Positions 18,431 through 57,617 of a stretch of 64,000 nucleotides of DNA are shown here, in pieces; within the stretch, counting starts at the first letter, position 1, and each line of letters starts with the position of its first letter. Source of the stretch: G963667425 sp963667425 [NCBI: bacterium] (GTDB taxonomy: Bacteria > UBP6 > UBA1177); NCBI GenBank assembly GCA_963667425.1, contig OY763407.1:1116001-1180000 (forward strand), written 5' to 3'. Made by a program: the position numbers and the translations under genes. The notes under the pieces are model-generated. The model was not told where the DNA came from. It made no database searches and saw only the letters and a list, made by a program, of their open reading frames with translations.

Positions 18431-18461
18431 CTTAATGCTTAAATTATTATGGAGTTATTTT

Positions 18462-20969
18462 ATGAAAAAATCATTGCTGTTTTTATCATTTTTTTTATTT
18501 ACACTTGGACTTTCTTCTTCCGAGCTTTTGATTGGAGGAAACATGATCAATGTCGAAAAATCTTCTAAATATTCGGCAGTTAAAACAGAAAAACAGTTAA
18601 AAAACGCTGTTGCGACACTTAAAGTCGGCAAATTAAATTACTCCATACTAAATAAAACGGACGGACTCCCCATCTATTTTATCAATGAGATGCCTGTAAT
18701 TATAGACAACTTCTTATACGTAAAAGGGGAAAAAAACTACAAATATCTTGAAAATAAATACGACATAAAACTTGTTGAAATAATGTCAGGCTATAATCTC
18801 TACAGATTCAGCACAAAAAATGATGCACTTATAATAAGTGAAAAAATAATAAAAAACGGTGATGGAAAAGCATTTCCTGAAATGATAAAAGAAAATTTCT
18901 TAACATACACTCCAGTTGTACCCAATGACAAGCATTATTCACATCAGTGGTTTCTGCATAACACCGGTTTTTATGCTGATAATGGACAGTATGCAGATAA
19001 AGACCTAACAACAGTTGAAGGTGCTGATATAAAATTTGATGAAGCTGTTAATTTTCTTATAGCGGAAAATGCAAATGTTGATGACACAACGAAAGTTGCA
19101 ATAATGGATTCAGGTGTTGCAACCGGTCACCCTGATCTTAATATGAAACTGGATACAGGATATAATGCAATAGACGATGTTGAAGGTGGAAATCCTGATA
19201 TAAGCAATATAGATTCATACTCATTTAATGAAGTGCTTGCTCTTTCACATGGAACAAATTGTGCCGGAGTAAGTGCAGCAGAAGGAGATGATAACGGTGT
19301 TACAGGTGTATGTCCATGGTGTGGAATATACCCGGTAAAATATCTTGAAGGAGTTACAGGCAGTGCTACAACTTCAAAAATGGTTCTTGATTCATTTCAA
19401 AAATATGTTGATGACCCTGCAATTGTTGCTGTCAACTGTAGCTATGGTCCGTCTTCAGAATATGGAAACGTTCCGGCATCAGAAGCAGAACTTGAAGCAC
19501 ACAAAAATTTTCTTCAAAACGGTAGAAACGGGAAAGGCGGAGCAATAGTATACGCAGCAGGAAATGACAATGTTGATGGCGGATACCATAGAATGCTCGA
19601 AACAGTTTTTAATGTTGATAGAGATGGAGATGGTACAGAGGAAACAGAAACAGGAGTCGTTACTGTTGCAGCTGTAACTGCATGGGATACAAAAGCTGTT
19701 TATTCCAACTTTGGTTCAAGCGTTGATGTTGCTGCACCATCATTATCGGAATTTCCAGTTATAGGAATGGCAACAACTGCAATTCCTGGATATGGAGATT
19801 TTGATACTGATTACTCTCTTATATTCTCAGGAACATCAGCAGCAGCGCCTGTAATAACAGGTTTTTTAGGAACACTTTTTTCCGTAAACCCTGATCTTAC
19901 TTTAGAGGAAGCAGTTAATATATTAAAACTAAGTGCAGACAAAATAAATCCTGAAACCGGAATGTATGATGAAAACGGACACAGTGTAAAATTTGGTTAC
20001 GGAAGAGCAAACCTTTTAAAAGCTGTACGTCTTGCCATGTCAAAAGAAATGTGTGCTTCCACAGGAGAGGAAAAATGTGATGACAACATCGATAACGACT
20101 GCGACGGGCTTGTAAATGAAGGATGCAATGGCGAAATACCTGTAGGAAATGCATGTGAAACAGATGAAGACTGTAAAGTAAGAAATGGATATACAGGAAA
20201 ATGTTTAACATCGTTATATGGAAACAATTATCCTGGAGGAATATGTGTTCTTGAGTCACAGGAAACGAGACCTTGTCCAGACGGAACAGTTTCAACACTT
20301 TCAGACGGCATATACTACTGCGTAAAGGATTGCAGCGCAGAAACACCATGTAACAGGGAAGAATATTACTGTTCAGATGAAGTATACGGAGTATGTACAC
20401 CATATTGCAGAGATGACAAAGACTGCAACCTTGAAAGCTACTGTAACAGCAATAAAAAATGTCAGAAAATACCACAGGGAATTGGTGGAAAATGCGACAC
20501 GGACGAAGATTGTGACGGAAATCAGTCAATGTGCATTCCTCCAAGTTATTATCCAAATGGATACTGTACTGCACAGTGCAGAAATGAAGATGATTCAACC
20601 TGCCCTACTGATGGACACTGCATAGAGATGAAGACAGGATATGGAACATTTAATATGTGTCTTGGAAAATGTACATCAGATGAAGATTGCAGACCCGACA
20701 GCGATGCCTATATCTGTCACGTAATAATGAATGGTAAAGAAGGTGTATGTTACCGCAAATGCAAACAGGACTCTGATTGCGGAGAATACATAAAATGTAC
20801 AGAAGAAGGAAGATGTGACGATGGAATATCAAATTCAGATTCTGATAAAGATCAAATCATTGATGAAGATACAGCAGAAACAGAAAATGAAGCAGTATCT
20901 GACACAGACACACTTACAGAAGATAAAAAATCAGGTTCTGATGGATGTTCCTGTTCACTTATTATCTGA
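18462..20969 (+). CDS. Secreted subtilisin-like serine protease (S8) with Cys-rich C-terminus and DGCSCS tail
   Basis: About 835 residues from the ATG at 18462 (GGAG 7 bp upstream; the ATG at 18435 lacks a site). It has a signal peptide, a propeptide-like region, then a subtilase domain. The triad is Asp in AIMDSGV (~216), His in LSHGTNCAG (~263) and Ser in FSGTSAAAP (~459), with oxyanion AAGNDN. After it comes a MopE-like motif, EKCDDNIDNDCDGLVNEGC. Several small Cys-rich modules (CxxDxDCxxxxxC) follow, then an Asp/Glu/Thr-rich linker. The protein ends abruptly in SDGCSCSLII. It is probably an exported, surface-held protease; the tail may be an anchor signal shared with two other proteins here. 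Confidence 0.9.
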   Translation: MKKSLLFLSFFLFTLGLSSSELLIGGNMINVEKSSKYSAVKTEKQLKNAVATLKVGKLNYSILNKTDGLPIYFINEMPVIIDNFLYVKGEKNYKYLENKYDIKLVEIMSGYNLYRFSTKNDALIISEKIIKNGDGKAFPEMIKENFLTYTPVVPNDKHYSHQWFLHNTGFYADNGQYADKDLTTVEGADIKFDEAVNFLIAENANVDDTTKVAIMDSGVATGHPDLNMKLDTGYNAIDDVEGGNPDISNIDSYSFNEVLALSHGTNCAGVSAAEGDDNGVTGVCPWCGIYPVKYLEGVTGSATTSKMVLDSFQKYVDDPAIVAVNCSYGPSSEYGNVPASEAELEAHKNFLQNGRNGKGGAIVYAAGNDNVDGGYHRMLETVFNVDRDGDGTEETETGVVTVAAVTAWDTKAVYSNFGSSVDVAAPSLSEFPVIGMATTAIPGYGDFDTDYSLIFSGTSAAAPVITGFLGTLFSVNPDLTLEEAVNILKLSADKINPETGMYDENGHSVKFGYGRANLLKAVRLAMSKEMCASTGEEKCDDNIDNDCDGLVNEGCNGEIPVGNACETDEDCKVRNGYTGKCLTSLYGNNYPGGICVLESQETRPCPDGTVSTLSDGIYYCVKDCSAETPCNREEYYCSDEVYGVCTPYCRDDKDCNLESYCNSNKKCQKIPQGIGGKCDTDEDCDGNQSMCIPPSYYPNGYCTAQCRNEDDSTCPTDGHCIEMKTGYGTFNMCLGKCTSDEDCRPDSDAYICHVIMNGKEGVCYRKCKQDSDCGEYIKCTEEGRCDDGISNSDSDKDQIIDEDTAETENEAVSDTDTLTEDKKSGSDGCSCSLII

Positions 20970-21623
20970 AACTGTATATGAATAAACGATTATACTTCTA
21001 AGATCTTCAGCCGTAAGAGGCTCTTTAAATCTACAACCGGCAAGTTGAACATATCTTCCTGAACTCCTGATTTTTTCAACTCTTCGCGGTTGAAGAACTA
21101 TTGTAGAAGGATTTGCGGTCTTGATACACATATAATAATCGTCACCAACAAACAGTTCTTTTGATGCAAAAAGGCATGCACCTGTCATAGAAATATTTAT
21201 TATGTAAATTTCTACAGAATCATGTACGCAATTTGCGGTAGTTTCAATAGAAACAGGAATTCTGTAATCACCTCTTTTATCACTATGAAGATCATGCGCC
21301 CACAACTGTAGTAAATTCCTTGCCTGGCTAACAACTTTGTATAAATTATTAGAACTTTCAATAATAATAATGTTGCCATAAATCTTTTGAAATAAATTGA
21401 GTATTTTATATTTTTCATCTTCTGACGTAGCGTTTTTTATTTTACCTATAGTACCCTTTATTTCTCTTTTCACAAGAATGAGTTCTTTAGACGGTTTAGA
21501 CTGCAAAACTAAGTCTATTGCATTTAAAACCTTATTCATAGAAAAATCCAGTTGCTCATCTATAGAGATATCAGATAAAACCGAATCCAAAAGCTCTTGA
21601 GAAATCAAAATTTCAGATGACAT
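20955..21623 (-). CDS. PilZ-domain protein
   Basis: A 222-residue cytoplasmic protein. The N-terminal half (to ~115) is helical and unrecognised. The C-terminal half carries a PilZ-like domain: KRGDYRIPV gives the RxxxR c-di-GMP contact and IINISMTGACLF the [DN]xSxxG contact. It is therefore a plausible c-di-GMP receptor. Its 3' end overlaps the convergent protease gene by 15 bp. No diguanylate cyclase is in the window. Confidence 0.75.
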   Translation of the reverse strand: MSSEILISQELLDSVLSDISIDEQLDFSMNKVLNAIDLVLQSKPSKELILVKREIKGTIGKIKNATSEDEKYKILNLFQKIYGNIIIIESSNNLYKVVSQARNLLQLWAHDLHSDKRGDYRIPVSIETTANCVHDSVEIYIINISMTGACLFASKELFVGDDYYMCIKTANPSTIVLQPRRVEKIRSSGRYVQLAGCRFKEPLTAEDLRSIIVYSYTVSDNK

Positions 21624-21789
21624 TAAATTTCTCCAACCGAAAAGATATAATTTATTCTAACCCTTTAAAAACGTTTTTCAAGAAATTAACTTTCCAAAAA
21701 ATAAAAATGATTGCTTTTTTTGTTTTTAAAAGTAGTCTTTCTTCGCTAATTTTATTAATGATATAACCCTGAAATGACAGGTGAAATTA

Positions 21790-22302
21790 ATGAAAAAAGA
21801 TAGCTTAATTAAAATAAGAAAACCTTTTCTGAAAGATATTGAAAAAATCTATGAACTGTCACAAAACGTTGACAATATAAATGATTTTATATCTCCATCA
21901 ATAATTACACTTGAAGAAATGAAAAGAAACTTTCAAAACAAAGGTTTTTGGGAGGATTATGATGGAATACCATTTATAATTGAAATTTCCGAAGAAAAAC
22001 TCATCGGAGAAATAATTGCATTTAAAAGTATACACTCTAAAGGAGAATATGAACTAAGTTATTACATATACAGAAAAGAAGACAGAAAAAAAGGGTACAT
22101 GACCAAAGCTCTAACACAAGCCATAGAACAAATATTTAAAGAAAATATAGCAAAAGAACTCTACATACTTGCAGATGAAAAAAACAGAGCCAGCTGGTCA
22201 GTGGCGGAAAACTGCGGATTCACCTATACAGGAACTAAACTCGAAGCAGTATTTCATCAGGGGGAATATAGAAAAGTAAGAACATATATACTCAAAAAAT
22301 GA
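21790..22302 (+). CDS. GNAT-family N-acetyltransferase
   Basis: About 170 residues from the ATG at 21790 (AGGTG 8 bp upstream; an in-frame GTG at 21781 adds three residues). The acetyl-CoA region is present in variant form (YYIYRKEDRKKGYMTKAL), and the C-terminus has the RimJ/RimL-like pattern NRASWSVAENCGFTYTG. It would transfer acetyl from acetyl-CoA to an unknown amine. It is a single gene. Confidence 0.82.
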   Translation: MKKDSLIKIRKPFLKDIEKIYELSQNVDNINDFISPSIITLEEMKRNFQNKGFWEDYDGIPFIIEISEEKLIGEIIAFKSIHSKGEYELSYYIYRKEDRKKGYMTKALTQAIEQIFKENIAKELYILADEKNRASWSVAENCGFTYTGTKLEAVFHQGEYRKVRTYILKK

Positions 22303-22630
22303 GAACCCTTGAGAAAAAAGTGGACATTAAATTAAGCCAGCTTACACTATGCAGTATAAAGCAAAAACAGGAAAAATAATAAACTATTTCTAAAAAATTA
22401 TTGAAAAGAATACATCAGAATCACTTTCATTTATATTGCCATCCAAACAGACAGACAACTTGAAGGTTAAAATCTTTAACCTGCTAAATCTAAAAAAATT
22501 TAAAACACTTTTATATTATACTTCTTAAGTATACTACATTTATAAAATTTATTTTTCTTGATTTTTTTATTATATAATGTATTCTTCTTTTAATACTTAA
22601 GAGGTATTAAAAGTATTATAGGAGTTTATA
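22303..22630 (+). promoter_or_regulatory. Leader of the first giant protein gene with two inverted operator-like sites
   Basis: This 328-bp gap holds a TATAAT at 22573-22578. Two related 17-bp sites stand in opposite orientation: 22517-22533 (TATACTTCTTAAGTATA) and 22592-22608 (AATACTTAAGAGGTATT). The second matches the reverse complement of the first at 14 of 17 bases, and each is itself close to palindromic. They bracket the -10 element, as a dimeric regulator's operators would. No good -35 is seen. A 7-bp perfect stem (GGTTAAA-atc-TTTAACC) stands at 22465-22481. Ribosome site TAGGAG precedes the ATG at 22631. Confidence 0.4.
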
Positions 22631-25600
22631 ATGAAAAAATCTATTCTTTTGTTTTTGTCTTTTTTTATTGCATCTTCAACGGTTTATGCTCAAATTTCAC
22701 TAATAAACATTGCTCAGTCAGGGGTTTCTTTACCTACAGCTACAGTATGGGAACAAAAATTGTCAAACCTTTCAAATGGAAGATGCAATATTCAAAATGA
22801 AGGTAATGCCGTCTCTCTATTTGGTAACACAAGTATACTTAAAGCAATGTCTACAACGTGGGGAGGAATAGGTTCTATCTACTATGTTCAGGCAGACACA
22901 GGATGGGATAATGGAAGTGGAACAAAAGGCTGGGAAATATCTGCTAACACAAAAGCTTTTGAAAACATGAGTGTAAGTTTCAGACCCATGTCTTACAACA
23001 GAAATGGAATAGATTTCGGGCCTCGCGATTTCAAAATTCAATATAGCCTTAATAATTCTACCTGGACAGATTTAGGAACGACCTACACATCTCAGGATAC
23101 ATGGTCAAGCGGGCTTTACACAAGAACTCTACCAAGTGAATGTAATGACAAATCTGTTGTTTATCTCCGCTGGATAATGTCAAGTAATATTGCAACAGAT
23201 GGCGGCAGTATAAGAGGTACTACTCCAGTATCAGCAATAGGAAACATTCTTATTACAGGAGATGTTATTCCATATTCTCCCACAGATATCCTGTTAAGCT
23301 CAAATAATGTTGATTTAAATGGAACTGCCGAAAGAACTGTAGGAACATTATCTTCTGTTGACATAAATGAATGTGATACAAACACATATTCTTTCGTTAC
23401 AGGCGATGGCGATACTAATAATGATGACTATATAATTGATGGGAATATACTCAAAGTAAAAAATGCAGTACTTTCAGGTACAGAAAATTCAGTAAGAATA
23501 AATGTAAATGATGGAACATATAATTATGCAAAAAGTTTTACCATTAATCTTAATCAACATTGCTCTATTGATTCTTCAGACGATTATTACTATTATATAT
23601 CAAAAGTTGAATTTAATACACTTGCAAGCACATCATTAAATAATGGGAATGGATATGAAGACTACACTTCGGAATCGACTTCAGTTAATATAGGATCAAC
23701 ATATAATATCAGTGTTGATATTTCCACCAACGAATCAAGCTCAGAGTATCCATATTATTTAAGAGCTTATATTGACTGGAATCACGACGGAATTTTTGAT
23801 ACTTCGGAGACTTCAAACGAAGTTTACGATTTAAATAGCGGAACAGAATATGACAATCAGACAATATCCAGCAGTATAACTGTACCTGATTCAGCTATAA
23901 CAGGTGAAACAGTTATGCGAATTACAGTAAGAGGACCATATGGAGGTATACCAGCAATTCCTGAATTTTATGCACCTGAATGCGGAACTTTTGATTATGG
24001 TGAAGCTGAAGATTATACATTAAATGTAAATACAGCAGTAGTTCTTCCCACAGTAACAACGACAGCAGTAACAAACTACAATTCAAACGCAGGAACTTTA
24101 GGCGGCAACGTGACATCAGACGGAGGAGAAACAGTAGCAGAAAGAGGAGTTGTATACTCAACGACAGACAGTACACCTGAAATCGGAGAAGCCGGAGTAA
24201 CAAAAGATACAAATGGAACAGGAACAGGTGAATTCAGTGAAGCAGTAACAGGACTTGCAATAAACACAACCCACTATGTAAGAGCATATGCAACAAATTC
24301 CGTTGGAACAGCATATGGTGATACCGTAAGCTTTACAACATTAAAAGCAACACCAAACATAACAACAGCGCCAACCGCAACTGCAATAACCTACGGAGAT
24401 GCACTCTCAGCATCGACGCTTTCAGGAGGAGTTGCAACAGTAGCCGGAACATTTGCATTTACAGATGATTCAATAACACCAGATGCAGAAACATATACAG
24501 CAGGAGTAACATTCACTCCGACAGATACAACAAACTACAATACAGCTACAACAACAATAAACGTAACAGTAAACAAAGCCGTATCAGTAATAACATGGGG
24601 AAATCCGTCAGACATAACATACGGAACAGCGCTTTCAGGAACCGAGTTAAACGCAGAAGCAAACGTAGCCGGAACATTTGAATACACACCCGCAATAAAT
24701 ACAGTACTCACAAGCGGCCACAGTCAAAGCCTGAGCGTAACATTTACACCAGATGATACAACAAACTACACAACAGAAACCAAAACAGTATCAATAAACG
24801 TAAGTCCGGCAGAGATCACCGCCAAAGCAGACGACAAAACAAGAAACTACGGCGAAGCCAACCCTGAATTTACAATAACCTACAGCGGCTTTGTGAACGG
24901 TGAAGACGAAACAGCAGTGACAACAGCATCAACAGCCGTAACAACAGCAACAGCAAACTCTCCGGCAGGCACATACGACATAACAGTAAACGGCGGAACA
25001 GCACCAAACTACACATTCACCTACACCAAAGGAACCCTTACAATAAACGGAATCATCCCGACAGCAACAACAGGCACAGCATCAACTCTAACAACCAGAC
25101 AGGCAACATTAAACGGAACAGTAGCAGACAATGGCGGCAATACAGTTACAGAAAAAGGAATCTGTATAAGCACATCAGCCAATCCAACCACAGCAGACAC
25201 CTGCATAACAGACACAAGTGAAGGAAGTGAAATAAGCGGAACATTCACAGGACTAACCCCAAACACGACCTATCACTACAGAGCATACGCAACCACTCTT
25301 GAAGGAACAGGATATGGAAATGACCAGACCTTCATTACATACAAAGCAGTAACAATAACAACAGGACAAAGCTTCAGCGTAAATGAAAACGAATCAGCGC
25401 TCACAGCAGTAGGAACAATAGAAATCACAGGAGACATCCAAGGCACAGCAAACTACACAATAACAGCAGGCGACACGGAAAACATCTTCCAGATGAGCGG
25501 AGCAGAAATACAAGTAGCAGATGCCACAAAACTCGACTATGAAACAGCCGTAAGCCATACAGTTACAGTAAAAGTTGAAGATGATGAAAACACCAGTGAA

Positions 25601-26731
25601 GAAACAGTCACAATCAATCTCACCAATCTTAACGACAACACTCCGGTAATAACCGACAGCCAGTACACACTCTCGGAAAACGCATTAAACGGCACAGTGA
25701 TAGCTACACTAAGCGCAGCAGATGCAGACGGCACACTAAACGAACTCACCTACACAATAGAGACAGGAAACAATGACGGCATCTTTGCACTAAATCCGGC
25801 AACAGGAGAGCTTACAGTCATTGACAACACAAACCTTGACTATGAAACCACAGCAAGCTATTCACTCGGAATAAAAGTAAGCGACACAGCAAACGAAGCC
25901 TCAGCCACAGTGACAGTAACCATCACAGACGACACAGGAACCTGCGCCGAACCGACCGAAATAGATACCCTGCCATTTACCGTAGACACAACAACAGCAG
26001 AAAGATACAGCAACATCACAAACTACGGAGCAAACTGCGGCGAAACCACATACGGAGAAAACGACCACACATATGTTTACACAGTAAGTGCAGGCGACAA
26101 AATAGAAATAACAGCCACACCCGAAACAGACTACGACCTGATCCTCATGATCCAGAGCGACTGCGGCAACAACTGTGACACATATGCAAACGAAGGAACG
26201 GCAGGAACAGCAGAAACCATAATCTATGAAGCGACAGAAAACAAAGACATCTACATCATAGTGGAAGGCATCAACGGAAGCGGAACCTACACACTTGACG
26301 TAAAAGTGAAAGTAGAAGAAACACCCGATGAAGACGAACTCACAGATGACGATGAAATCATTGATGAAGAAACCGATGAAGACATCTATCCGGTAGACGA
26401 AGATGAAATAACAGATGATGATGCAACATCAACTGATGAAGATGAAGTCATTGACGAAGAAACCGATGAGGACATCTATCCGGCAGACGAAGATGAAATA
26501 ACAGATGATGATGCAACATCAACTGATGAAGATGAAACCATTGACGAAGAAACAGATGAAGACATCTATCCGGCAGATGAAGACGAAGTTACCGACACAG
26601 AAACAGATAACGATGTAACAGAAGTCATTGATGAAGAAAATGATGAAGAGACAGATACTGAAGAAACTGACTTAGATATCGTTAAACCTTCCTCTGATGA
26701 TGGCTGCGGATGCAGTGTGATTTCATGGTAG
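22631..26731 (+). CDS. Giant secreted multidomain protein A (GEVED, YDG/MBG, cadherin-like, acidic tail)
   Basis: A 1366-residue protein with signal peptide (cut near VYA-QIS). From the N-terminus: an unrecognised beta-rich region, and a GEVED-type module (~310-466; YIDWNHDGIFDTSE, CGTFDYGEAEDYTLNV). Next comes an Fn3-like repeat (~471-570), then YDG/MBG modules (VTFTPTDTTNYNTAT; ITAKADDKTRNYGEANP). A second Fn3-like unit, two cadherin-like repeats and a PPC-like domain (YGANCGETTYGENDHTYVYT) follow. It closes with an acidic 30-residue repeat tether and the tail SSDDGCGCSVISW. Everything after residue ~570 is nearly identical to protein B. It is probably a surface adhesin or matrix protein. 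Confidence 0.82.
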   Translation: MKKSILLFLSFFIASSTVYAQISLINIAQSGVSLPTATVWEQKLSNLSNGRCNIQNEGNAVSLFGNTSILKAMSTTWGGIGSIYYVQADTGWDNGSGTKGWEISANTKAFENMSVSFRPMSYNRNGIDFGPRDFKIQYSLNNSTWTDLGTTYTSQDTWSSGLYTRTLPSECNDKSVVYLRWIMSSNIATDGGSIRGTTPVSAIGNILITGDVIPYSPTDILLSSNNVDLNGTAERTVGTLSSVDINECDTNTYSFVTGDGDTNNDDYIIDGNILKVKNAVLSGTENSVRINVNDGTYNYAKSFTINLNQHCSIDSSDDYYYYISKVEFNTLASTSLNNGNGYEDYTSESTSVNIGSTYNISVDISTNESSSEYPYYLRAYIDWNHDGIFDTSETSNEVYDLNSGTEYDNQTISSSITVPDSAITGETVMRITVRGPYGGIPAIPEFYAPECGTFDYGEAEDYTLNVNTAVVLPTVTTTAVTNYNSNAGTLGGNVTSDGGETVAERGVVYSTTDSTPEIGEAGVTKDTNGTGTGEFSEAVTGLAINTTHYVRAYATNSVGTAYGDTVSFTTLKATPNITTAPTATAITYGDALSASTLSGGVATVAGTFAFTDDSITPDAETYTAGVTFTPTDTTNYNTATTTINVTVNKAVSVITWGNPSDITYGTALSGTELNAEANVAGTFEYTPAINTVLTSGHSQSLSVTFTPDDTTNYTTETKTVSINVSPAEITAKADDKTRNYGEANPEFTITYSGFVNGEDETAVTTASTAVTTATANSPAGTYDITVNGGTAPNYTFTYTKGTLTINGIIPTATTGTASTLTTRQATLNGTVADNGGNTVTEKGICISTSANPTTADTCITDTSEGSEISGTFTGLTPNTTYHYRAYATTLEGTGYGNDQTFITYKAVTITTGQSFSVNENESALTAVGTIEITGDIQGTANYTITAGDTENIFQMSGAEIQVADATKLDYETAVSHTVTVKVEDDENTSEETVTINLTNLNDNTPVITDSQYTLSENALNGTVIATLSAADADGTLNELTYTIETGNNDGIFALNPATGELTVIDNTNLDYETTASYSLGIKVSDTANEASATVTVTITDDTGTCAEPTEIDTLPFTVDTTTAERYSNITNYGANCGETTYGENDHTYVYTVSAGDKIEITATPETDYDLILMIQSDCGNNCDTYANEGTAGTAETIIYEATENKDIYIIVEGINGSGTYTLDVKVKVEETPDEDELTDDDEIIDEETDEDIYPVDEDEITDDDATSTDEDEVIDEETDEDIYPADEDEITDDDATSTDEDETIDEETDEDIYPADEDEVTDTETDNDVTEVIDEENDEETDTEETDLDIVKPSSDDGCGCSVISW
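24341..26731 (+). repeat. 2.39-kb cassette, copy 1
   Basis: This stretch aligns with 30754-33144 at a constant offset of 6413 bp with no net insertion or deletion, and most windows of 60 bp or more that I compared are identical. It encodes the YDG/MBG, cadherin-like, PPC-like, acidic-repeat and DGCGCS parts of protein A. Codon choice inside it leans to A- and C-ending codons (ACA, AAC, GCA), more than in the upstream half of protein B. A short post-stop string (AATAATTTTATGTAA at 26743 and 33159) is also shared. Confidence 0.9.
26327..26698 (+). repeat. 90-bp tandem repeats encoding the acidic tether of protein A
   Basis: The 30-residue unit ITDDDATSTDEDEVIDEETD + EDIYPADEDE recurs about three times before degenerating into shorter Asp/Glu/Thr strings. 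It lies directly before the Cys-containing C-terminus. Repeat units are nearly identical in DNA, so copy number is probably prone to slippage or assembly collapse. Confidence 0.85.
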
Positions 26732-26940
26732 GCAGGATGATGAATAATTTTATGTAACCTACATTTTCTTTTTCCTTATATATAGTTATCTATCTATGTT
26801 TTCTAAAAAGTATCAGCAGCAGTTAACATATCTAAGAGCTTTTTCTTATGATAATTTGAATATTTAAATTGTCTTTTTGTTGCAAAGTTATTAAAATCAA
26901 ATGTTTATATTTTTCGTTGATAGTAAAAGGAGTGAATTCT

Positions 26941-29900
26941 ATGAAGAATTTTTTTATTAAAACTTTCTTTTTTCTATTTCTAGTTGCATCAACAACAGTT
27001 TATGGTGTGACTATTACAGTAACAAATACAAATGATTCAGGAGCAGGCAGTCTCAGACAGGCAATAACTGATGCCTCAGCTGGGGATACCATAGAGTTTA
27101 GCGTTTCAGGAACAATAACTCTTTCATCGTCGCTTACAATAAGCAAAAATCTTACTATTCAGGGACCTGGAGCTTCTTCTCTAGATATAAGTGGTAATAA
27201 TAGCGTTAGGGTTTTTCTCGTAAGTGGTTCAGCCGTTGTAACTATTAATGACCTGTCAATTATAAATGGTACCGCCAGTAATTATGGTGGTGGTGTTGAA
27301 AATGATCAGGCAACTACCACTATAAACAACTGTAAAATAACTGGTTGTACTGTTACTGGGACTGGTACAGGCGCTGGGGTTGATAGCTATAATGGAACTG
27401 TAACCATCAACAACTCTTTGCTTTCAGGTAATACAGCAGGTGGTCGTGGTGGAGCTGTTTCCGCATATGGCGGTTCTATGACTCTGAATAACTCTACTCT
27501 TGATAGTAACAATGCAGATATGGGTGGAGCTATAGGGCAGTTGCAGAGTACAGGTGATTTGACTGTAACCGGTTGTACAATAAGTAATAACAGTGCAAAT
27601 CAGGGACAGAATTATGGTGGTGGAATCTACTGGTATAATGGTACTGTAAATATAACAAATACAACTTTTTCAGGTAATAGTGCAAGTTATGGTGGTGCTA
27701 TTTCAGATGGATCGGCAGCTTACACTATGAATATAAATGCCTGCACAATTGTTAATAACAGTGCTTCTACTCAGGGTGGTGGTATATTATTAAGAAATGC
27801 CACAGCAAATATTAAAAATACAATTCTTGCTTCCAATACCTGTGCAACTGGAGCAAATTATTATAGTGATGGCGGGACTCTTACTTCTCAGGGATACAAT
27901 CTATGTGATGTAGCTCTTACTGCATTTACGGGTACAGGCGATATCCAGAATGGAACTCTTAATATAGATGTTCTCGCAGATAATGGCGGTTCAACAAACA
28001 CCCACGCACTATTAAGCGGTAGTGATGCAATAGATGCAATACCTGCAGCAAACTCCTATAACGGTATACCTGTCACTGACCAGATCGGCACATCAAGACC
28101 TCAAGGCATAAATGCAGATATAGGAGCATACGAAAAAACTGTGACAGTTGCCCTATCAGTAACGACACAGGCTGTAACTAGCGTAACTGCAACAACAGCA
28201 ACAGGAAATGGAAATATAACCAGTCTGGGAGCATCTAGCCCAACAGCTCACGGAGTCTGCTGGAATACTACAGGAAATCCTAAAACAGTGGATGACTGTA
28301 CTGATGAAGGCTCTGCAACGATCCTCGGTACTTTCAGTTCAGAAATGACAGGACTTAGTGAGAATATGACTTATTATGTCCGTGCCTATGCAACAAATAA
28401 CGAAGGAACTTCTTATGGAAATGAATTCATATTCACAACGCAGCCTTCTGCTCCTCAGCCAAACTATGCTCTTACTTTTGACGGAACAGATGATTATGTA
28501 ACTGCTAATGGAGTGTGTAACACGATAGCCTCAGAATTTACAATTGAAACATGGTTTAATACTGATGATGTTACCGGTTCCGGAAACAATCAGTCAATCT
28601 GGGCAATTAATGATGGTGATGGAATTCAGAATCTTCTTGTTCTGGGTTTGGGATCTGAAGGTAAAATTGCTGTCTGGCATTATAACGGTACATCAAATAC
28701 AAGACTTTTTACAGGAACATCTACTTTAGAAAATAATCAATGGTATCATATAGCATTAACTGTTGGTGGTGGAACTCTGACTGTCTATTTAAATGGAAAA
28801 GAGGAGTGGACAGGTGCTAAAACAATTACTGTTGGCAATACAGATCTTTTTTCAATAGGACAGGAATGGGATAATACAACTGCATCTGAATTCTTTAATG
28901 GTAAAATTGATGAATTTCGTATTTGGAACGACATCCGTACAAAAACTGAAATTCGTCAGAATATGTACCGTGAGCTTCCAGATCCGGCATCTGAAACAAA
29001 TCTCACAGCTTATTACAAGTTCAACGAAACTGCAGGAACAACACTCAGGGATTCAAAAAACAGCAACACAGGAACACTGACAAATATGACAGGGGTTGAA
29101 TGGATTCCTTCAAATGCAATGTCAGGACCTAAAAAAGCATTGGATCTTGATGGAAACAATGATTATGTTTTTGCAAATTTAAACTCATCAGGATCTTCAG
29201 CTATTACAATAGAGTCTTATATTTATTTCAATAATCTGACGAATCAGCAGAACATTATTCATATTGATGATGGCGGAGCAAATCTGAGAATTGTTCCCTA
29301 TAAATCTGCAGACAATAAAATAAGTTTGTTTGTAGCAAATTCATTAAATCAGGGTGATGTATTAAGTAGTGATTTTACATTAGAGGTAAATAAATGGTAT
29401 CACTTTGCATTTGTTTATGACAACAGATATTCTGCTATTTATGTAAATGGTAAAAAAGTTGCTGAAAAAACGGTAGCTTACAGTTACTCGCTTGATGGAA
29501 CAGATCGATTATATTTGGGGGCTGACTGGGGAACAGGTTTTCCTTCAAATATTAAAATAGATGAAGTTCGTATCTGGAACACTGCTAGAACCACTTCTGA
29601 AATACGCGAAAACATGATGCACCATCTTACAGGAAATGAGACAGGGCTTATTGCTTATTACAATTTTGATAATACAAGCGGCACAATTTTGCAGGATTTT
29701 TCAGAAAATGAAAATGATGCTACTCTTATGAATATGGATAACACTGACTGGGTTGATTCAGAGGCATATAATACATGGCTTGGAGCAGCAGGCAGCGATT
29801 GGTCAGAAGCTTTGAACTGGTCTGATGGTGTTCCGACCTCTATAGATAATGTTGGAATATATAAATGGCCAGGAAATTCCGAAGTTTCTATTTCGGGAAC

Positions 29901-32900
29901 TCCTGAAGTCAACAACATTCTTATTTCATCCACATCTACACCAACTCTTGATTCGAACATTACCGTTAACGGCCACCTTTTACTTGAAAAGGATATGAAT
30001 CTTAATGGCAAAACAGTAACAATTGGAATTGCAGGAACTTTAGTTGAAGAGACCGGAATATTTTCTGGAACAAGCGGAGAGATAACAACAACAAGAAATC
30101 TCAGCAGTATTACTTCGGAAAATGTAGGTGGTCTGGGAGCAATTATTACCACAGCTGCCAATATGGGATCAACCACCATTACAAGAAAACATACTTCTTT
30201 ATCAGGGGGTATGCTTGATGGAAGTATTTTAAGAAGTTACGATATTAGCCCCGCAAACAACAGTGGTCTCGGTGCCACTCTTGTATTCAGTTATCTTGAC
30301 GGAGAACTTAACGATCTTACAGAGTCTTCACTGACTCTTTTCAAATCAACTGACAGCGGTACTACATGGACAAATGAAAGCGGAACTGTTGACACACAAT
30401 ATAAAACTGTAACTTTGGCAGGAATTGATGGATTTTCATTGTGGACAGCAGGAAAAGCCGTTGCCACTCCAACAGTTACGACAGGTAGCGCAACTTCAGT
30501 CGTTTCAGATAGCGCAGTTCTTAACGGAACAGTGAATGCCAATGATAATAGTACAATGGTAACATTTGAATATGGACTTAGTACCGAATATGGAACAACA
30601 GCCACTGCTGATGAAAGTCCTGTTATTGGAACAGAAGAGATATCTGTAAGCAAAACTATTACAGGACTCTCTCCAAATACGACCTATCACTACCGTGTAG
30701 TTGGAACAAACGGTGGTGGAACTGTAAATGGAACAGATATGACTTTTACAACATTAAAAGCAACCCCGACTATCACAACAGCGCCCACAGCCACTGCAAT
30801 AACCTACGGCGAGGCACTCTCAGCATCAACACTATCAGGAGGAGTTGCAACAACAGCCGGAACATTTGCATTTACAGATGATTCAATAACACCAGATGCA
30901 GAAACATATACAGCAGGAGTAACATTCACTCCGACAGATACAACAAACTACAATACAGCTACAACAACAATAAACGTAACAGTAAACAAAGCAGCACCAG
31001 TAATAACATGGGGAAATCCGTCAGACATAACATACGGAACAGCGCTTTCAGGAAACGAGTTAAACGCAGAAGCAAACGTAACAGGAACATTTGAATACAC
31101 ACCTGCAATAAATACGATTCTCGAAAGCGGATTCAGTCAAAGCCTGAGCGTAACATTTACACCAGGTGATACAACAAACTACACAACAGAAACCAAAACA
31201 GTATCAATAAACGTAAGTCCGGCAGAGATCACCGCCAAAGCAGACGACAAAACAAGAAACTACGGCGAAGCCAACCCGGCATTTACAATAACCTACAGCG
31301 GCTTTGTGAACGGTGAAGACGAAACAGCAGTGACAACAGCATCAACAGCCGTAACCACAGCAACAGCAAACTCTCCGGCAGGCACATACGACATAACAGT
31401 AAGCGGCGGAACAGCACCAAACTACACATTCACCTACACCAAAGGAACCCTTACAATAAACGGAATCATCCCGACAGCAACAACAGGCACAGCATCAACT
31501 CTAACAACCAGACAGGCAACATTAAACGGAACAGTAGCAGACAATGGCGGCAATACAGTTACAGAAAAAGGAATCTGTATAAGCACATCAGCCAATCCGA
31601 CAACAGCAGACACCTGCATGACAGACACAAGTGAAGAAAGCGTAATAATCGGAACATTCACAGGACTAACCCCAAACACGACCTACCACTACAGAGCATA
31701 CGCAACCACTCTTGAAGGAACAGGATATGGAAATGACCAGACCTTCATTACATACAAAGCAGTAACAATAACAACAGGACAAAGCTTCAGCGTAAATGAA
31801 AACGAACCAGCGCTCACAGCAGTAGGAACAATAGAAATCACAGGAGACATCCAAGGCACAGCAAACTACACAATAACAGCAGGCAACACGGAAAACATCT
31901 TCCAGATGAGCGGAGCAGAAATACAAGTAGCAGATGCCACAAAACTCGACTATGAAACAGCCGTAAGCCATACAGTTACAATAAAAATTGAAGATGATGA
32001 AAACACAAGTGAAGAAACTGTTACAATCAATCTCACCAACCTTAACGACAACACTCCGGTAATAACCGACAGCCAGTACACACTATCGGAAAACGCATTA
32101 AACGGCACAGTGATAGCTACACTAAGCGCAGCAGATGCAGACGGCACACTAAATGAACTCACCTACACAATAGAAACAGGAAACAATGACGGCATCTTTA
32201 CACTAAATCCAACAACAGGCGAGCTTACAGTAATAGACAACACAAACCTTGACTATGAAACCACAGCAAGCTATTCACTCGGAATAAAAGTAAGCGACAC
32301 AGAAAACGAAGCCACAGCCACAGTGACAATAACCATCACAGACGAAACAGGAACCTGCGCCGAACCGACCGAAATAGATACCCTGCCATTTACAGTAGAC
32401 ACAACAACAGCCGAAAGATACAGCAACATCACAAACTACGGAGCAAACTGCGGCGAAACCACATACGGAGAAAACGATCACACATATGTTTACACAGTAA
32501 GTGCAGGCGACAAAATAGAAATAACAGCCACACCCGAAACAGACTACGACCTGATCCTCATGATCCAGAGCGACTGCGGCAGCAACTGTGACACATATGC
32601 AAACGAAGGAACGGCAGGAACGGCAGAAACCATAATCTATGAAGCGACAGAAAACAAAGACATCTACATCATAGTGGAAGGCATCAACGGAAGCGGAACC
32701 TACACACTTGACGTAAAAGTGAAAGTAGAAGAAACACCCGATGAAGACGAACTCACAGATGACGATGAAATCATTGATGAAGAAACCGATGAAGACATCT
32801 ATCCGGTAGACGAAGATGAAATAACAGATGATGATGCAACATCAACTGATGAAGATGAAGTCATTGACGAAGAAAACGATGATGACATCTATCCGGCAGA

Positions 32901-33144
32901 CGAAGATGAAATAACAGATGATGATGCAACATCAACTGATGAAGATGAAGTCATTGACGAAGAAACTGATGAAGACATCTATCCGGCAGATGAAGACGAA
33001 GTTACCGACACAGAAACAGATAACGATGTAACAGAAGTCATTGATGAAGAAAATGATGAGGAATCCGACACTGAAGAAACTGACTCTGATATCGTTAAAC
33101 CTTCCTCTGATGATGGCTGCGGATGCAGTGTGATTGCCTGGTAA
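26941..33144 (+). CDS. Giant secreted multidomain protein B (beta-helix, two LamG, YDG/MBG, cadherin-like, acidic tail)
   Basis: 2067 residues from the ATG at 26941 (AAAAGGAG upstream; an in-frame ATG/TTG-type extension to 26869 has no ribosome site). It has a signal peptide (VYG-VTI). A right-handed beta-helix starts with TVTNTNDSGAGSLRQAITDA and continues with PbH1-like repeats to ~385. An Fn3-like unit follows. Two LamG/jellyroll domains lie at about 506-703 and 731-913 (ALTFDGTDDYV; ALDLDGNNDYV; each ending AYYxFN/D). Then an unassigned region, another Fn3-like unit (~1180-1270), and the cassette shared with protein A. The tail is SSDDGCGCSVIAW. Likely a surface-anchored glycan-binding adhesin. 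Confidence 0.85.
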   Translation: MKNFFIKTFFFLFLVASTTVYGVTITVTNTNDSGAGSLRQAITDASAGDTIEFSVSGTITLSSSLTISKNLTIQGPGASSLDISGNNSVRVFLVSGSAVVTINDLSIINGTASNYGGGVENDQATTTINNCKITGCTVTGTGTGAGVDSYNGTVTINNSLLSGNTAGGRGGAVSAYGGSMTLNNSTLDSNNADMGGAIGQLQSTGDLTVTGCTISNNSANQGQNYGGGIYWYNGTVNITNTTFSGNSASYGGAISDGSAAYTMNINACTIVNNSASTQGGGILLRNATANIKNTILASNTCATGANYYSDGGTLTSQGYNLCDVALTAFTGTGDIQNGTLNIDVLADNGGSTNTHALLSGSDAIDAIPAANSYNGIPVTDQIGTSRPQGINADIGAYEKTVTVALSVTTQAVTSVTATTATGNGNITSLGASSPTAHGVCWNTTGNPKTVDDCTDEGSATILGTFSSEMTGLSENMTYYVRAYATNNEGTSYGNEFIFTTQPSAPQPNYALTFDGTDDYVTANGVCNTIASEFTIETWFNTDDVTGSGNNQSIWAINDGDGIQNLLVLGLGSEGKIAVWHYNGTSNTRLFTGTSTLENNQWYHIALTVGGGTLTVYLNGKEEWTGAKTITVGNTDLFSIGQEWDNTTASEFFNGKIDEFRIWNDIRTKTEIRQNMYRELPDPASETNLTAYYKFNETAGTTLRDSKNSNTGTLTNMTGVEWIPSNAMSGPKKALDLDGNNDYVFANLNSSGSSAITIESYIYFNNLTNQQNIIHIDDGGANLRIVPYKSADNKISLFVANSLNQGDVLSSDFTLEVNKWYHFAFVYDNRYSAIYVNGKKVAEKTVAYSYSLDGTDRLYLGADWGTGFPSNIKIDEVRIWNTARTTSEIRENMMHHLTGNETGLIAYYNFDNTSGTILQDFSENENDATLMNMDNTDWVDSEAYNTWLGAAGSDWSEALNWSDGVPTSIDNVGIYKWPGNSEVSISGTPEVNNILISSTSTPTLDSNITVNGHLLLEKDMNLNGKTVTIGIAGTLVEETGIFSGTSGEITTTRNLSSITSENVGGLGAIITTAANMGSTTITRKHTSLSGGMLDGSILRSYDISPANNSGLGATLVFSYLDGELNDLTESSLTLFKSTDSGTTWTNESGTVDTQYKTVTLAGIDGFSLWTAGKAVATPTVTTGSATSVVSDSAVLNGTVNANDNSTMVTFEYGLSTEYGTTATADESPVIGTEEISVSKTITGLSPNTTYHYRVVGTNGGGTVNGTDMTFTTLKATPTITTAPTATAITYGEALSASTLSGGVATTAGTFAFTDDSITPDAETYTAGVTFTPTDTTNYNTATTTINVTVNKAAPVITWGNPSDITYGTALSGNELNAEANVTGTFEYTPAINTILESGFSQSLSVTFTPGDTTNYTTETKTVSINVSPAEITAKADDKTRNYGEANPAFTITYSGFVNGEDETAVTTASTAVTTATANSPAGTYDITVSGGTAPNYTFTYTKGTLTINGIIPTATTGTASTLTTRQATLNGTVADNGGNTVTEKGICISTSANPTTADTCMTDTSEESVIIGTFTGLTPNTTYHYRAYATTLEGTGYGNDQTFITYKAVTITTGQSFSVNENEPALTAVGTIEITGDIQGTANYTITAGNTENIFQMSGAEIQVADATKLDYETAVSHTVTIKIEDDENTSEETVTINLTNLNDNTPVITDSQYTLSENALNGTVIATLSAADADGTLNELTYTIETGNNDGIFTLNPTTGELTVIDNTNLDYETTASYSLGIKVSDTENEATATVTITITDETGTCAEPTEIDTLPFTVDTTTAERYSNITNYGANCGETTYGENDHTYVYTVSAGDKIEITATPETDYDLILMIQSDCGSNCDTYANEGTAGTAETIIYEATENKDIYIIVEGINGSGTYTLDVKVKVEETPDEDELTDDDEIIDEETDEDIYPVDEDEITDDDATSTDEDEVIDEENDDDIYPADEDEITDDDATSTDEDEVIDEETDEDIYPADEDEVTDTETDNDVTEVIDEENDEESDTEETDSDIVKPSSDDGCGCSVIAW
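30754..33144 (+). repeat. 2.39-kb cassette, copy 2
   Basis: Partner of 24341-26731, occupying residues ~1272-2067 of protein B. It begins within the shared words ACA-TTA-AAA-GCA (TTLKA) and ends at the stop codon. The reading frames are matched, so the exchange preserved both proteins. Differences are scattered single substitutions (for example ESVIIG here, GSEISG in copy 1). Confidence 0.9.
32740..33111 (+). repeat. 90-bp tandem repeats encoding the acidic tether of protein B
   Basis: Same 30-residue acidic unit as in protein A, with the same number of units and small changes (EENDDDIYPADEDE in the middle unit). The tether joins the PPC-like domain to the DGCGCS tail. Confidence 0.85.
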
Positions 33145-33402: not shown

Positions 33403-33443
33403 TTATTAAGTTATATAACAAAATATTGCTCTGGAGAAATCTT

Positions 33444-35897
33444 ATGAAATACATCATTATATTATTTTCTATATTTATTATTACAGGGTGCTTTGAGTTT
33501 CCGCCAAGCGGAGTTGAAGATGACAGCTCCCTATTTGACACAAGTTTTATAGGACAGTCTTCTTTTGACTCCGGCTTATCAATAGCAGCCAATGCTATAG
33601 GAAATATTTACGTTACTGGTTACACGACAAATAACCTTGATGACAATTCAGCTCTTGGGCAAGAAGATGCCTGTCTTATAAAATTTGGAAGTGATGGAAA
33701 CAAAAGATGGAGCACACAGTGGGGAACATCCAGTTCTGATAACGGGGCAGATCTTATAATAGACAAAGCTGGCAACATATACATAATAGGTACGACTTCA
33801 GGTCATATGGATAGCAATATGCCTTTAGGTAAAACGGATATATTTATCTCTAAATTCGTTGACAACGGTGAAAAATTATGGACAAAACTTATTGGAACAA
33901 ATCAAAATGATAAGGGACATGCCATAACAATAGATAATCAGGAAAATATATACTTTCTTGGAGATACAAATGGTTCTTTTGATAAATCGTCAGATAGCGA
34001 AATATCAAACATTGTTATAGGAAAAATGAATAAAGATGGCGAGAGTTTATGGATAAAACAAATAGAAAATAAGAACAATTCCTATTCCGGAGATATTATA
34101 GCAGATACAGATGGAAATATAGTTGTTACAGAGAGAATAAGTGACAATTCCAATAATAAAAGTGGTAAAATCAAATTGATGAAACTCAATAGCAGTGGAA
34201 CAGAATTATGGAAAATATTATTTGAAAGTGAGAATATTTTTAATGGCGGGTTTATAGATAGTGACAGCAAAAATGATGTTTATTTAGGCATAACCACATA
34301 TTCAAATGTTGAAGGATTTAAAAATAAAATAAAAGGCGGCATATCTCTGGAAAAATATAATAGTATGGGATCAAAATTATGGAAAAAAGATCTTTTAAAA
34401 TCTGATGAACTTTCAAGTGATATAATTACATCAGTGAAAACAGATAAAAATGGAGATATCCTTTTAAGTGGATATACATACAAAATAAAAGACTATGATT
34501 TTTCAGATAACAATATTATTGCCGCAAAATTTGACAGAGATGGCAATCAAATATGGAAACAGGAATTTGGATCTAATAAAAATGATGTAGCTACATCTGT
34601 AACGGTAAATAATAAAAACTCTATTTTTCTCACAGGCTATACCTATGGAAGTATGGAAAATGATACACAGGCTGTTCAGTCTGATATTTTTTTAATGAAT
34701 CTTGACAGCAATGGCAACAAAATTTTCTCAAAGCAGAACAGCAGTAAAAGCAGAAGCATAATAACATCACTGATCGTAAAGGAATGCAAAGATGAAGATA
34801 AAGATTATTATTACGATATATATATGACAGGATATACTGAAGGAACGTTTGACGACGGAGTATCAAGAGGCAAAATTGATGCTTTTATAACATATGGACT
34901 CCCGTATCCTCAAAATTTTGGAACACCAGAAGATGATAAAGCAACGTCAATGATAGTAAACGAAAATAACATAAAGTTTATAACAGGAACAACTAAAGGC
35001 TCCACTTCAGTAGAGACACCATTTGGGGGAGACGATATATTTCTGGTATTAATTGAAAAAAGTTTCACAGTTTGGGCAACACAGTTTGGAACAGATAAAG
35101 ATGATAACAGCATTGCCGTAATACAAAATTCAAACAGTGAATTATTAGTTGTAGGAGACACCGAAGGATCTTTTAATGGGAACACATCAGATAATTTATC
35201 CAACATTTTTATAGCAAAATTTACCGAACTTGGTGAAAAAGTATGGATAAAAGAATTTGAAATACCAAAAGGAACTAAAACAACCGCAGCAACTTCAGAT
35301 AAAGAGGGAAATATATTTATAACAGGATATACAAATGGCAGTATTGGAAGCAATACTAATCTGGGTAAAAATGACATATTTCTTGTAAAAGTAGACAGCA
35401 ATGGCAACAAAGTGTGGGATACACAATGGGGAACTTTAGAAGAAGACAAAGGAAACTCTCTAGCGATTGATAGTGAATCAAATATTTATGTAACAGGTTT
35501 TGTAAGTTCAGACAAAGGAATAGACAGTAATGTTTTTATAACAAAATTTAATAATGACGGTAGTCAAATCTGGCATAAAAACTGGGGAACAGATTTCGAT
35601 GATCAGGCTTCCGCAATAGCTGTCGATACGAATAGCGATATTTTTGTTACCGGTAATACAAAAGGAAACTTATATAAAAACAAAAAAGGAGAATGTGAAA
35701 TATTTATAACACGCCTTAGCAAAAGTGGAAAAACTATTAAAGAATATCAATTTGATTCTATCGAATGTGAAAACAGTAGTGCAATATCTGTAATAGATCA
35801 ATACAGAATCTATATAGCAGGTTATGCCGAAAATTTAACAGAAAGTAATATTACTTATGAAAGTGAAAATCTTTTTGTAGGATACATATACTACTGA
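33444..35897 (+). CDS. SBBP beta-propeller repeat lipoprotein
   Basis: About 817 residues from the ATG at 33444 (GGAG 8 bp upstream; a TTG at 33426 is less likely). Lipobox IITGC at residue ~18. The rest consists of SBBP-type repeats of roughly 45-55 residues: W-x-x-QWGT-x-x-x-D, then GNIYITGxTxG, then DIFxxKxxxxG. These fold into beta-propeller blades. It is probably an outer-surface lipoprotein of unknown binding role. Its last codons (GYIYY-stop) overlap a 17-bp sequence repeated at 38329, marking the edge of an insertion. Confidence 0.87.
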   Translation: MKYIIILFSIFIITGCFEFPPSGVEDDSSLFDTSFIGQSSFDSGLSIAANAIGNIYVTGYTTNNLDDNSALGQEDACLIKFGSDGNKRWSTQWGTSSSDNGADLIIDKAGNIYIIGTTSGHMDSNMPLGKTDIFISKFVDNGEKLWTKLIGTNQNDKGHAITIDNQENIYFLGDTNGSFDKSSDSEISNIVIGKMNKDGESLWIKQIENKNNSYSGDIIADTDGNIVVTERISDNSNNKSGKIKLMKLNSSGTELWKILFESENIFNGGFIDSDSKNDVYLGITTYSNVEGFKNKIKGGISLEKYNSMGSKLWKKDLLKSDELSSDIITSVKTDKNGDILLSGYTYKIKDYDFSDNNIIAAKFDRDGNQIWKQEFGSNKNDVATSVTVNNKNSIFLTGYTYGSMENDTQAVQSDIFLMNLDSNGNKIFSKQNSSKSRSIITSLIVKECKDEDKDYYYDIYMTGYTEGTFDDGVSRGKIDAFITYGLPYPQNFGTPEDDKATSMIVNENNIKFITGTTKGSTSVETPFGGDDIFLVLIEKSFTVWATQFGTDKDDNSIAVIQNSNSELLVVGDTEGSFNGNTSDNLSNIFIAKFTELGEKVWIKEFEIPKGTKTTAATSDKEGNIFITGYTNGSIGSNTNLGKNDIFLVKVDSNGNKVWDTQWGTLEEDKGNSLAIDSESNIYVTGFVSSDKGIDSNVFITKFNNDGSQIWHKNWGTDFDDQASAIAVDTNSDIFVTGNTKGNLYKNKKGECEIFITRLSKSGKTIKEYQFDSIECENSSAISVIDQYRIYIAGYAENLTESNITYESENLFVGYIYY
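35879..35895 (+). repeat. 17-bp direct repeat, left copy
   Basis: AGGATACATATACTACT ends the SBBP gene here and recurs exactly at 38329-38345. The stop codon follows at once (TGA here; TAA in the right copy, also in frame for GYIYY). The sequences outside and inside differ. Confidence 0.85.
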
Positions 35898-57408: not shown

Positions 57409-57617
57409 ATCTCCTTCCCCCATAAAAATCCTAAGGAGTATATCAGAGCCAAAAAGAAAGAAGAAATAAAAAAAGAAAAAGAATTTTAAAATCAAAACCT
57501 GAATCGGAATGTCACATACTGGAGCCATTATAACATGCAATTCTCTTCAGTTTGACAACTTTTAGTTACAGTTTTATAAAAAAATCATAGAAAAAATAAA
57601 AACCACATCAGATTAGT

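What the first reader, a model, noticed from the sequence alone, without database searches (positions are those of the whole stretch)
20940..33144. Shared abrupt C-terminal tail DGC-x-CS-[VL]-I on three secreted proteins
The subtilase ends SDGCSCSLII, giant protein A ends SDDGCGCSVISW and giant protein B SDDGCGCSVIAW. The two-Cys core resembles the Cys of MYXO-CTERM sorting tags, which are lipidated and cut by a rhombosortase-like or CAAX-type enzyme (established for Myxococcus). Here the membrane helix and basic tail that normally follow are absent: only 4-6 residues remain. This suggests a helix-less sorting signal, perhaps recognised after export. The subtilase differs in fold from A and B, so the tail is not simple paralogy.
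Basis: partly seen in the sequence, partly recalled or inferred. Interest (0 to 1): 0.75.

Follow-up and report, generated by a model that had tools for sequence, protein, structure and literature searches.

The report
Helix-less C-terminal cysteine sorting tail
An uncultured bacterial lineage ends many of its secreted proteins with a tiny cysteine tag that looks like the core of a known surface-anchoring signal but without its membrane helix, a bit like the CaaX box that attaches lipids to proteins inside our own cells.

Summary
The three tails are real. The window's genome is not held, so I searched relatives (28 genomes, two record titles say UBP6). The tail is lineage-wide: 76 ORFs in 11 genomes end C-[ST]-Phi-Phi plus 0-5 residues, mostly after a D/E/T-rich stalk and mostly with a Sec signal peptide. 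In two 800-kb samples read without motif preselection it is above chance (13 vs 0.65; 7 vs 0.84 expected); Ala can replace S/T. A motif-blind check found 14 ORFs homologous to the bodies of known carriers: all 14 end in a Cys tag, 10 short and 4 helix-bearing. Carriers have unrelated folds. One Cys suffices. Paralogs in one genome differ by having or lacking the helix. The 19 closest genomes each have one CaaX-type (CPBP) protease, all nearest to myxosortase models but below cut-offs, with an Rce1-like predicted fold. Best reading: a post-export lipid-anchoring tag sharing the MYXO-CTERM machinery, with a CaaX-like trailer. Lipidation and trimming are inferred, not shown. It is not a MYXO-CTERM member (no helix, no basic end) but probably works like one. 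New variant of a known kind.

The parts
20937..20966 (+). C-terminal tail SDGCSCSLII of the subtilase
18435..20969 (+). Exported subtilase (PF00082), hydrophobic signal peptide, D/E/S/T-rich stalk before the tail
26693..26728 (+). C-terminal tail SDDGCGCSVISW of protein A
22631..26731 (+). Exported giant protein A (GEVED, MBG_2, cadherin domains), acidic repeat stalk, short tail
33106..33141 (+). C-terminal tail SDDGCGCSVIAW of protein B
26869..33144 (+). Exported giant protein B (choice-of-anchor Q domain, two Laminin_G_3 stretches, MBG_2, cadherin); last 857 aa 91% identical to A; true start probably the internal ATG of MKNFFIKTFFFL (inference)

Best explanation
The tail is a helix-less version of the MYXO-CTERM signature: a C-terminal anchoring tag read after Sec export. 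Proposed order: (1) export by the N-terminal signal peptide (predicted from sequence); (2) the short hydrophobic end lets an inner-membrane acyltransferase (an Lgt-type enzyme is the candidate proposed for Myxococcus) put a lipid on the Cys that precedes the small residue (inferred); (3) the myxosortase-like CPBP protease of these genomes removes the 3-8 residues after that Cys, as Rce1 removes aaX from a prenylated CaaX protein (inferred); (4) the protein stands on the surface on its acidic stalk, delivered by type II secretion (inferred; secretin gene present). The helix of MYXO-CTERM is dispensable here because only the core, Cys - S/T/A - two hydrophobic residues, is read. Lipid anchoring through the Cys is the part I commit to (the confidence below); trimming is less sure.
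For: Above chance: 13 observed vs 0.65 expected in 800 kb of G025, 7 vs 0.84 in 800 kb of G005, 3 vs 0.06 in the window; with Ala allowed after the Cys 16 vs 0.76, 9 vs 1.09, 3 vs 0.04. Pattern hits 59 vs 13 for the reversed control over G001, G013, G008, G017. Read in frame, those genomes gave 30 short and 6 helix-bearing tails (58 of the 59 hits fetched, one hit added, ORFs with fewer than 80 residues before the motif and one antisense-looking ORF, L103, dropped); samples of G023, G024, G026-G028 gave 26 short and 0 long, 4 hits not in an ORF. Motif-blind: of 14 ORFs in the unselected samples and window that match the body (last 90 residues cut off) of a known carrier, 14 end in a Cys tag, 10 short and 4 with helix. 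Export: all 25 complete family ORFs show a hydrophobic N-terminus and no lipobox (start chosen to favour hydrophobicity); without that choice 12 of 13, 6 of 7 and 3 of 3 against 222/673, 242/666 and 23/44 of all ORFs. Carriers include subtilase, metallophosphatase, amidase, FG-GAP, beta-propeller, CAP and DUF11 families; 7 of 20 scanned had no Pfam match. Same core with and without helix in G025 paralogs 59.5% identical over 1013 columns. 29 distinct DNA spellings of the core in 30 genes. Exactly one CPBP in 19 of 19 family genomes; 26 of 29 CPBP proteins scanned match myxosortase models best, covering 26 of 28 genomes; EExxxR, His and HxxxN invariant in 16 aligned, which were picked by a script that asked for such motifs; predicted fold matches SpdC 6u0o (Z 14.7, 196 residues, 3.2 A) and Rce1 4cad (Z 13.5, 195 residues, 3.5 A), next row Z 5.1. 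No exosortase in 28 of 28; type II GspD over cut-off in 25 of 28. Strict lipobox in 3 of 47 carriers vs 134 of 376 other signal-peptide proteins. Acidic stalks also follow ordinary lipobox Cys (mean D+E 0.245 vs 0.159 after type I signals, P 2e-15; before tails 0.325).
Against: No lipid, cleavage or surface location has been measured. The CPBP proteins score below every myxosortase cut-off (Mrt_core 75-98 bits vs 100) and might serve only the few helix-bearing tails. G024 has 7 confirmed short tails but its only CPBP match has no NCBIfam hit at E 0.001 (the genome is small, 1.5 Mb); of two G020 matches the one scanned is not myxosortase-like. CPBP proteins are common (11 of 14 control genomes). 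Lgt-family matches (3-7 per genome, some two pieces of one protein) are as frequent in all 28 genomes and single out no enzyme. Cys number in short and long tails agrees only roughly: G005 all single, G025 14 of 16 short CxC and 3 of 3 long CxC, but G023 has a single-Cys long tail with a CxC short one. The lipobox bias is weak in the unselected sets alone (3/22 vs 134/376, P 0.04) and absent with a looser detector (5/18 vs 145/374, P 0.46); a few carriers have both. S/T after the Cys and the CxC form were required by most of my searches, so the conservation of the core in ortholog pairs (above the stalk in 23 of 23, above the body in 19 of 23) is partly built in. Five of the seven G005 tails look like one related group, so fewer independent events. 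The window's genome is not held; relatives are about 60% identical in DnaE.
Confidence: 0.6

Rival explanations
1. Lipid anchor on the Cys without any trimming: the helix-less tag bypasses the protease, and the CPBP enzyme serves only the helix-bearing tails. (A sub-case of the best explanation; its odds are part of that 0.6.)
For: Only 3-8 residues follow the Cys, so cleavage is not needed to free the protein; helix-bearing substrates exist in the same genomes; G024 has short tails but no myxosortase-like protein was found.
Against: The two hydrophobic residues after the small residue fit a protease site as well as a transferase site; no data separate the two.
Confidence: 0.25
2. The tail is a short C-terminal peptide recognised by a PDZ-type or other periplasmic receptor (for example GspC of the type II system) as a secretion or quality-control signal, without lipid.
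For: Ends are short and hydrophobic; GspD is over cut-off in 25 of 28 genomes. The title of PMC12369372 (search listing only) says the PDZ domain of EpsC is needed for secretion of VesB.
Against: A PDZ ligand needs fixed spacing to the carboxylate (recalled), but the residues after the Cys range from 3 to 8; it explains neither the Cys nor the same core followed by a helix in paralogs.
Confidence: 0.15
3. The Cys residues make disulfides or bind metal, stabilising or crosslinking surface proteins; the hydrophobic end is incidental.
For: CxC is the commonest form found, though most searches asked for it.
Against: Single-Cys tails in G005 (7 of 7) and two in G025; the position is C-terminal and the hydrophobic pair follows also in motif-blind homologs.
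Confidence: 0.1
4. Non-functional remnants of MYXO-CTERM that lost the helix.
For: Shared core with helix-bearing tails.
Against: Short forms outnumber long ones in what I read (30 to 6; 26 to 0), sit on unrelated families, and all 14 motif-blind homologs keep a Cys tag.
Confidence: 0.03

Closest known systems
MYXO-CTERM / myxosortase MrtX (Myxococcus xanthus; TIGR03901, NF040593)
   Same: Cys signature of generic GCGC form near the C-terminus of Sec-exported surface proteins; in relatives a CPBP protease closest to the myxosortase models and a type II secretin
   Different: No transmembrane helix and no Arg-rich end; only 3-8 residues follow the Cys; acidic stalk; no TIGR03901 match on the three window proteins; protease below the myxosortase cut-offs
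Eukaryotic CaaX box with Rce1 (features recalled)
   Same: Cys followed by aliphatic residues at the very end (some tails are exactly four residues, e.g. CSVI, CSIL); protease with Rce1-like predicted fold
   Different: On exported, not cytosolic, proteins; length after the Cys varies; no prenyltransferase was looked for
Bacterial N-terminal lipobox (Lgt/LspA)
   Same: Read backwards the tail resembles a lipobox: two hydrophobic residues, a small residue, Cys, then G/S and an acidic tether
   Different: Opposite end of the protein; the small residue is mostly S, also T or A, while in the lipobox of these genomes it is A, S or G
GlyGly-CTERM / rhombosortase
   Same: C-terminal surface-sorting tag on secreted proteins (abstracts in the listing)
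   Different: Gly/Ser motif with hydrophobic region and basic end; rhomboids here are generic (26 of 28 genomes, also 14 of 14 controls)

Membership tests
MYXO-CTERM | Short signature with invariant Cys (generic GCGC) | tested here: met
   definition from PMC11980579 passages
MYXO-CTERM | Transmembrane helix after the signature | tested here: not met
   4-5 residues after the last Cys in the three window tails; no convincing hidden helix past the stop
MYXO-CTERM | Arg-rich cytoplasmic end | tested here: not met
MYXO-CTERM | N-terminal signal peptide | tested here: met
   hydrophobicity-based reading
MYXO-CTERM | Match to TIGR03901 | tested here: not met
   no hit on the three window proteins at E<=1; in relatives over cut-off in 5 of 28 genomes, in open frames of 1035-1096 aa whose ends carry a helix
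MYXO-CTERM | Cognate myxosortase (MrtX-type CPBP) | tested here: inconclusive
   myxosortase-like CPBP in 26 of 28 relatives, below all NCBIfam cut-offs; window's genome not held; none inside the window
MYXO-CTERM | Cys-dependent cleavage and surface anchoring | not testable with these tools
   needs biochemistry
CPBP/Rce1-like protease (the enzyme of relatives) | EExxxR, His, HxxxN residues and Rce1-like fold | tested here: met
   16-sequence alignment, rows preselected for such motifs; model pLDDT 94.3; 6u0o Z 14.7 and 4cad Z 13.5 over 196 and 195 residues; plain Foldseek alone gave no significant match

The most novel reading that the evidence does not exclude
This is an extracytoplasmic CaaX box: after export the Cys is lipidated and a CaaX-type glutamic protease trims the last 3-8 residues, giving an outer-surface protein held by a C-terminal lipid with no membrane helix ever involved. 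It would bridge MYXO-CTERM and eukaryotic CaaX processing.
Probability: 0.35. Interest if true: 0.88.

Novelty: new variant of a known kind. Interest (0 to 1): 0.74.

Why it matters
MYXO-CTERM and GlyGly-CTERM tags are described as tripartite, with a helix and a basic end (PMC11980579 and abstracts). A helix-less relative used on many proteins would show which part of the tag is really read, gives a natural minimal substrate for finding the still unidentified acyltransferase of the MYXO-CTERM pathway, and would give bacteria a very short, possibly transferable, surface-anchoring tag.

Tried and rejected
Rhombosortase or exosortase as the partner: no exosortase in 28 of 28 genomes; rhomboids are generic. 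A tail-specific Lgt: each genome has several Lgt-family matches, one beside an LspA-like gene (L299), others beside lipid-transport genes or a sensor gene, but none is tied to tail genes, so no enzyme is named. CPBP beside tail genes: seen once, in G025:C11, with the CPBP that is not myxosortase-like; not so in G027. The first pattern (DGC-x-C) undercounted; the wider GC-x-C pattern cannot see single-Cys tails, so counts in G001, G013, G008 and G017 are biased to CxC. The 800-kb samples were read without motif preselection, but G025 was chosen because it was tail-rich and its four sampled contigs had pattern hits; G005 was chosen for its long contigs. The S/T after the Cys was first thought fixed; allowing Ala added three tails in G025 and one in G005 plus one likely chance ORF. 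Outside the count of 76: G025 GCGCALIL, G025:C11 GCGCSLVM and G013 GGCSINEI, and the Ala forms. No tail was confirmed in the G020 and G021 samples. Solved structures by sequence profile: no hit. The guess that window 294-1094 is an Lgt-like gene was wrong: it is an ABC-2 membrane protein. Literature: searches showed no title or abstract start describing a helix-less tail, but several lists were cut (20 of 24, 15 of 90, 10 of 165 shown) and mostly found a yeast protein of the same name; Haft 2024 (PMC10810001) is not held and was not read, so absence from print is not claimed.

Full report
Observation. The three C-termini are as described and are the only ones of 44 called window ORFs with C-[ST]-Phi-Phi plus 0-4 residues; 0.06 are expected from how often the motif occurs inside the proteins. 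A and B share their last 857 residues at 91% identity and count as one; the subtilase is independent. All three have hydrophobic, type I-like signal peptides, while the large exported neighbours without the tail at 33426-35897 and 52207-57540 have a lipobox-like N-terminal Cys.

Relatives. The window's genome is not held. DnaE found 16 loci at 58-60% identity, two titled UBP6. A DNA pattern for GC-x-C-[ST]-Phi gave 16, 9, 17 and 17 hits in G001, G013, G008 and G017 against 2, 3, 4 and 4 for the reversed control, and no excess in the other genomes of that family. Reading the fetched hits in frame gave 30 short tails and 6 helix-bearing ones. In the wider group of 28 genomes a stricter pattern was enriched in G024-G028 (12, 22, 19, 21, 21 vs controls 3, 0, 0, 0, 1, list of places cut short). 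From 20 stretches of G020, G021, G023, G024 and G026-G028, 26 in-ORF hits were all short and 4 hits were not in an ORF; none was confirmed in G020 or G021.

Samples without motif preselection. In 800 kb of G025 (673 ORFs) 13 short tails were seen vs 0.65 expected (P 3e-13); with Ala allowed, 16 vs 0.76. In 800 kb of G005 (666 ORFs) 7 vs 0.84 (P 3e-5); with Ala, 9 vs 1.09, one of them a likely chance ORF. The G005 tails are single-Cys, such as SDGCSMLFI and SSGCSVVTL; five look like one related group. G025 was picked as tail-rich, so its density is not typical.

Motif-blind check. The bodies of 30 family carriers (those over 250 aa, last 90 residues removed) were compared with ORFs of these samples and the window. 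Fourteen ORFs matched at E<=1e-15 over half the query, the window subtilase among them. All 14 end in a Cys tag: 8 by the S/T motif, 2 with Ala (GCGCALIL, AGCALIL), and 4, all in G005, with a helix and basic end. So the tag is kept, and it switches between short and long form within one family. This is the fairest evidence for conservation, because the ortholog-pair comparison used genes found through the motif.

Relation to MYXO-CTERM. TIGR03901 is over cut-off in 5 of 28 genomes, in open frames of 1035-1096 aa. In G025 a member of that protein family (1010 aa) ends CCCGCSLVF, while its 59.5%-identical paralog continues from the same place into a helix and basic end. In G013 two paralogs (L092, L100; 73% identical over 609 residues) also differ in tail type, though L092 has a shorter body and a stalk. 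Cys number in short and long tails agrees roughly (G005 all single; G025 14 of 16 short and 3 of 3 long CxC), with G023 as a counterexample.

Enzymes. All 28 genomes have a CPBP protein; the 19 family genomes have exactly one each. Of 29 CPBP proteins scanned, 26 match myxosortase models best, all below cut-offs; the exceptions are L292 (second CPBP of G025), L266 (G020) and L272 (G024). G024 is a problem for the protease part: it has short tails but no myxosortase-like protein was found in its 1.5 Mb. The predicted model resembles SpdC and Rce1 far above other rows. Lgt-family matches number 3-7 per genome, some being two pieces of one protein; which, if any, acts on the tails is unknown. In Myxococcus, MrtX cleavage depends on the Cys, while lipidation and an Lgt-like enzyme are proposals (PMC11980579, abstract and passages).

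Stalk and lipobox. Stalks rich in D/E precede the tails (mean D+E 0.325 over 40 residues, 18 tails) and also follow lipobox Cys (0.245, 150 proteins) more than type I signal peptides (0.159, 229 proteins). Carriers rarely have a strict lipobox, 3 of 47 vs 134 of 376, but in the unselected sets alone it is 3 of 22 (P 0.04), and the looser detector gave 5 of 18 vs 145 of 374, not significant. Read backwards, the tail resembles a lipobox.

Conclusion. Shown by computation: a conserved C-terminal, protein-level tag, mostly on exported proteins of unrelated folds, across a bacterial group, sharing its core with helix-bearing MYXO-CTERM-like tails, in genomes that mostly carry a myxosortase-like protease. 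Inferred: lipidation of the Cys, possible trimming, surface display. I put lipid anchoring at about 0.6, of which true CaaX-like trimming about 0.35.

Noticed in passing
L297:3201-7099, L300, L303, L292, L293: A divergent Lgt-family membrane protein (PF01790 E 4e-19 and 4e-17 in the two scanned) sits beside MCE-like and, in most, ABC-ATPase and MlaE-like genes of a lipid-transport cluster in several genomes (neighbours named by eye).
   Followed up: partly
L208:966-4724: A 1252-residue protein joins an Lgt-like domain to what looks by eye like a beta-propeller sensor and an AraC-type DNA-binding end; open frames of 1241-1267 aa with an Lgt match occur in G025-G028. The rest was not scanned.
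   Followed up: partly
window:294-4189: Mla-type lipid transport cluster (MlaE, ABC ATPase, MlaD) followed by an ABC-2 membrane gene.
   Followed up: partly
window:22631-33144: Proteins A and B share 857 C-terminal residues at 91% identity but show no such match in their N-terminal parts, a recent modular duplication.
   Followed up: partly
L311:5129-14560: Three helix-tailed proteins of one family (1011-1045 aa) lie in tandem in G025.
   Followed up: no
window:38358-44252: Rnf/Nqr-type electron transport cluster (RnfC-, RnfD- and ferredoxin-type matches) with two similar small lipoproteins inside it.
   Followed up: no
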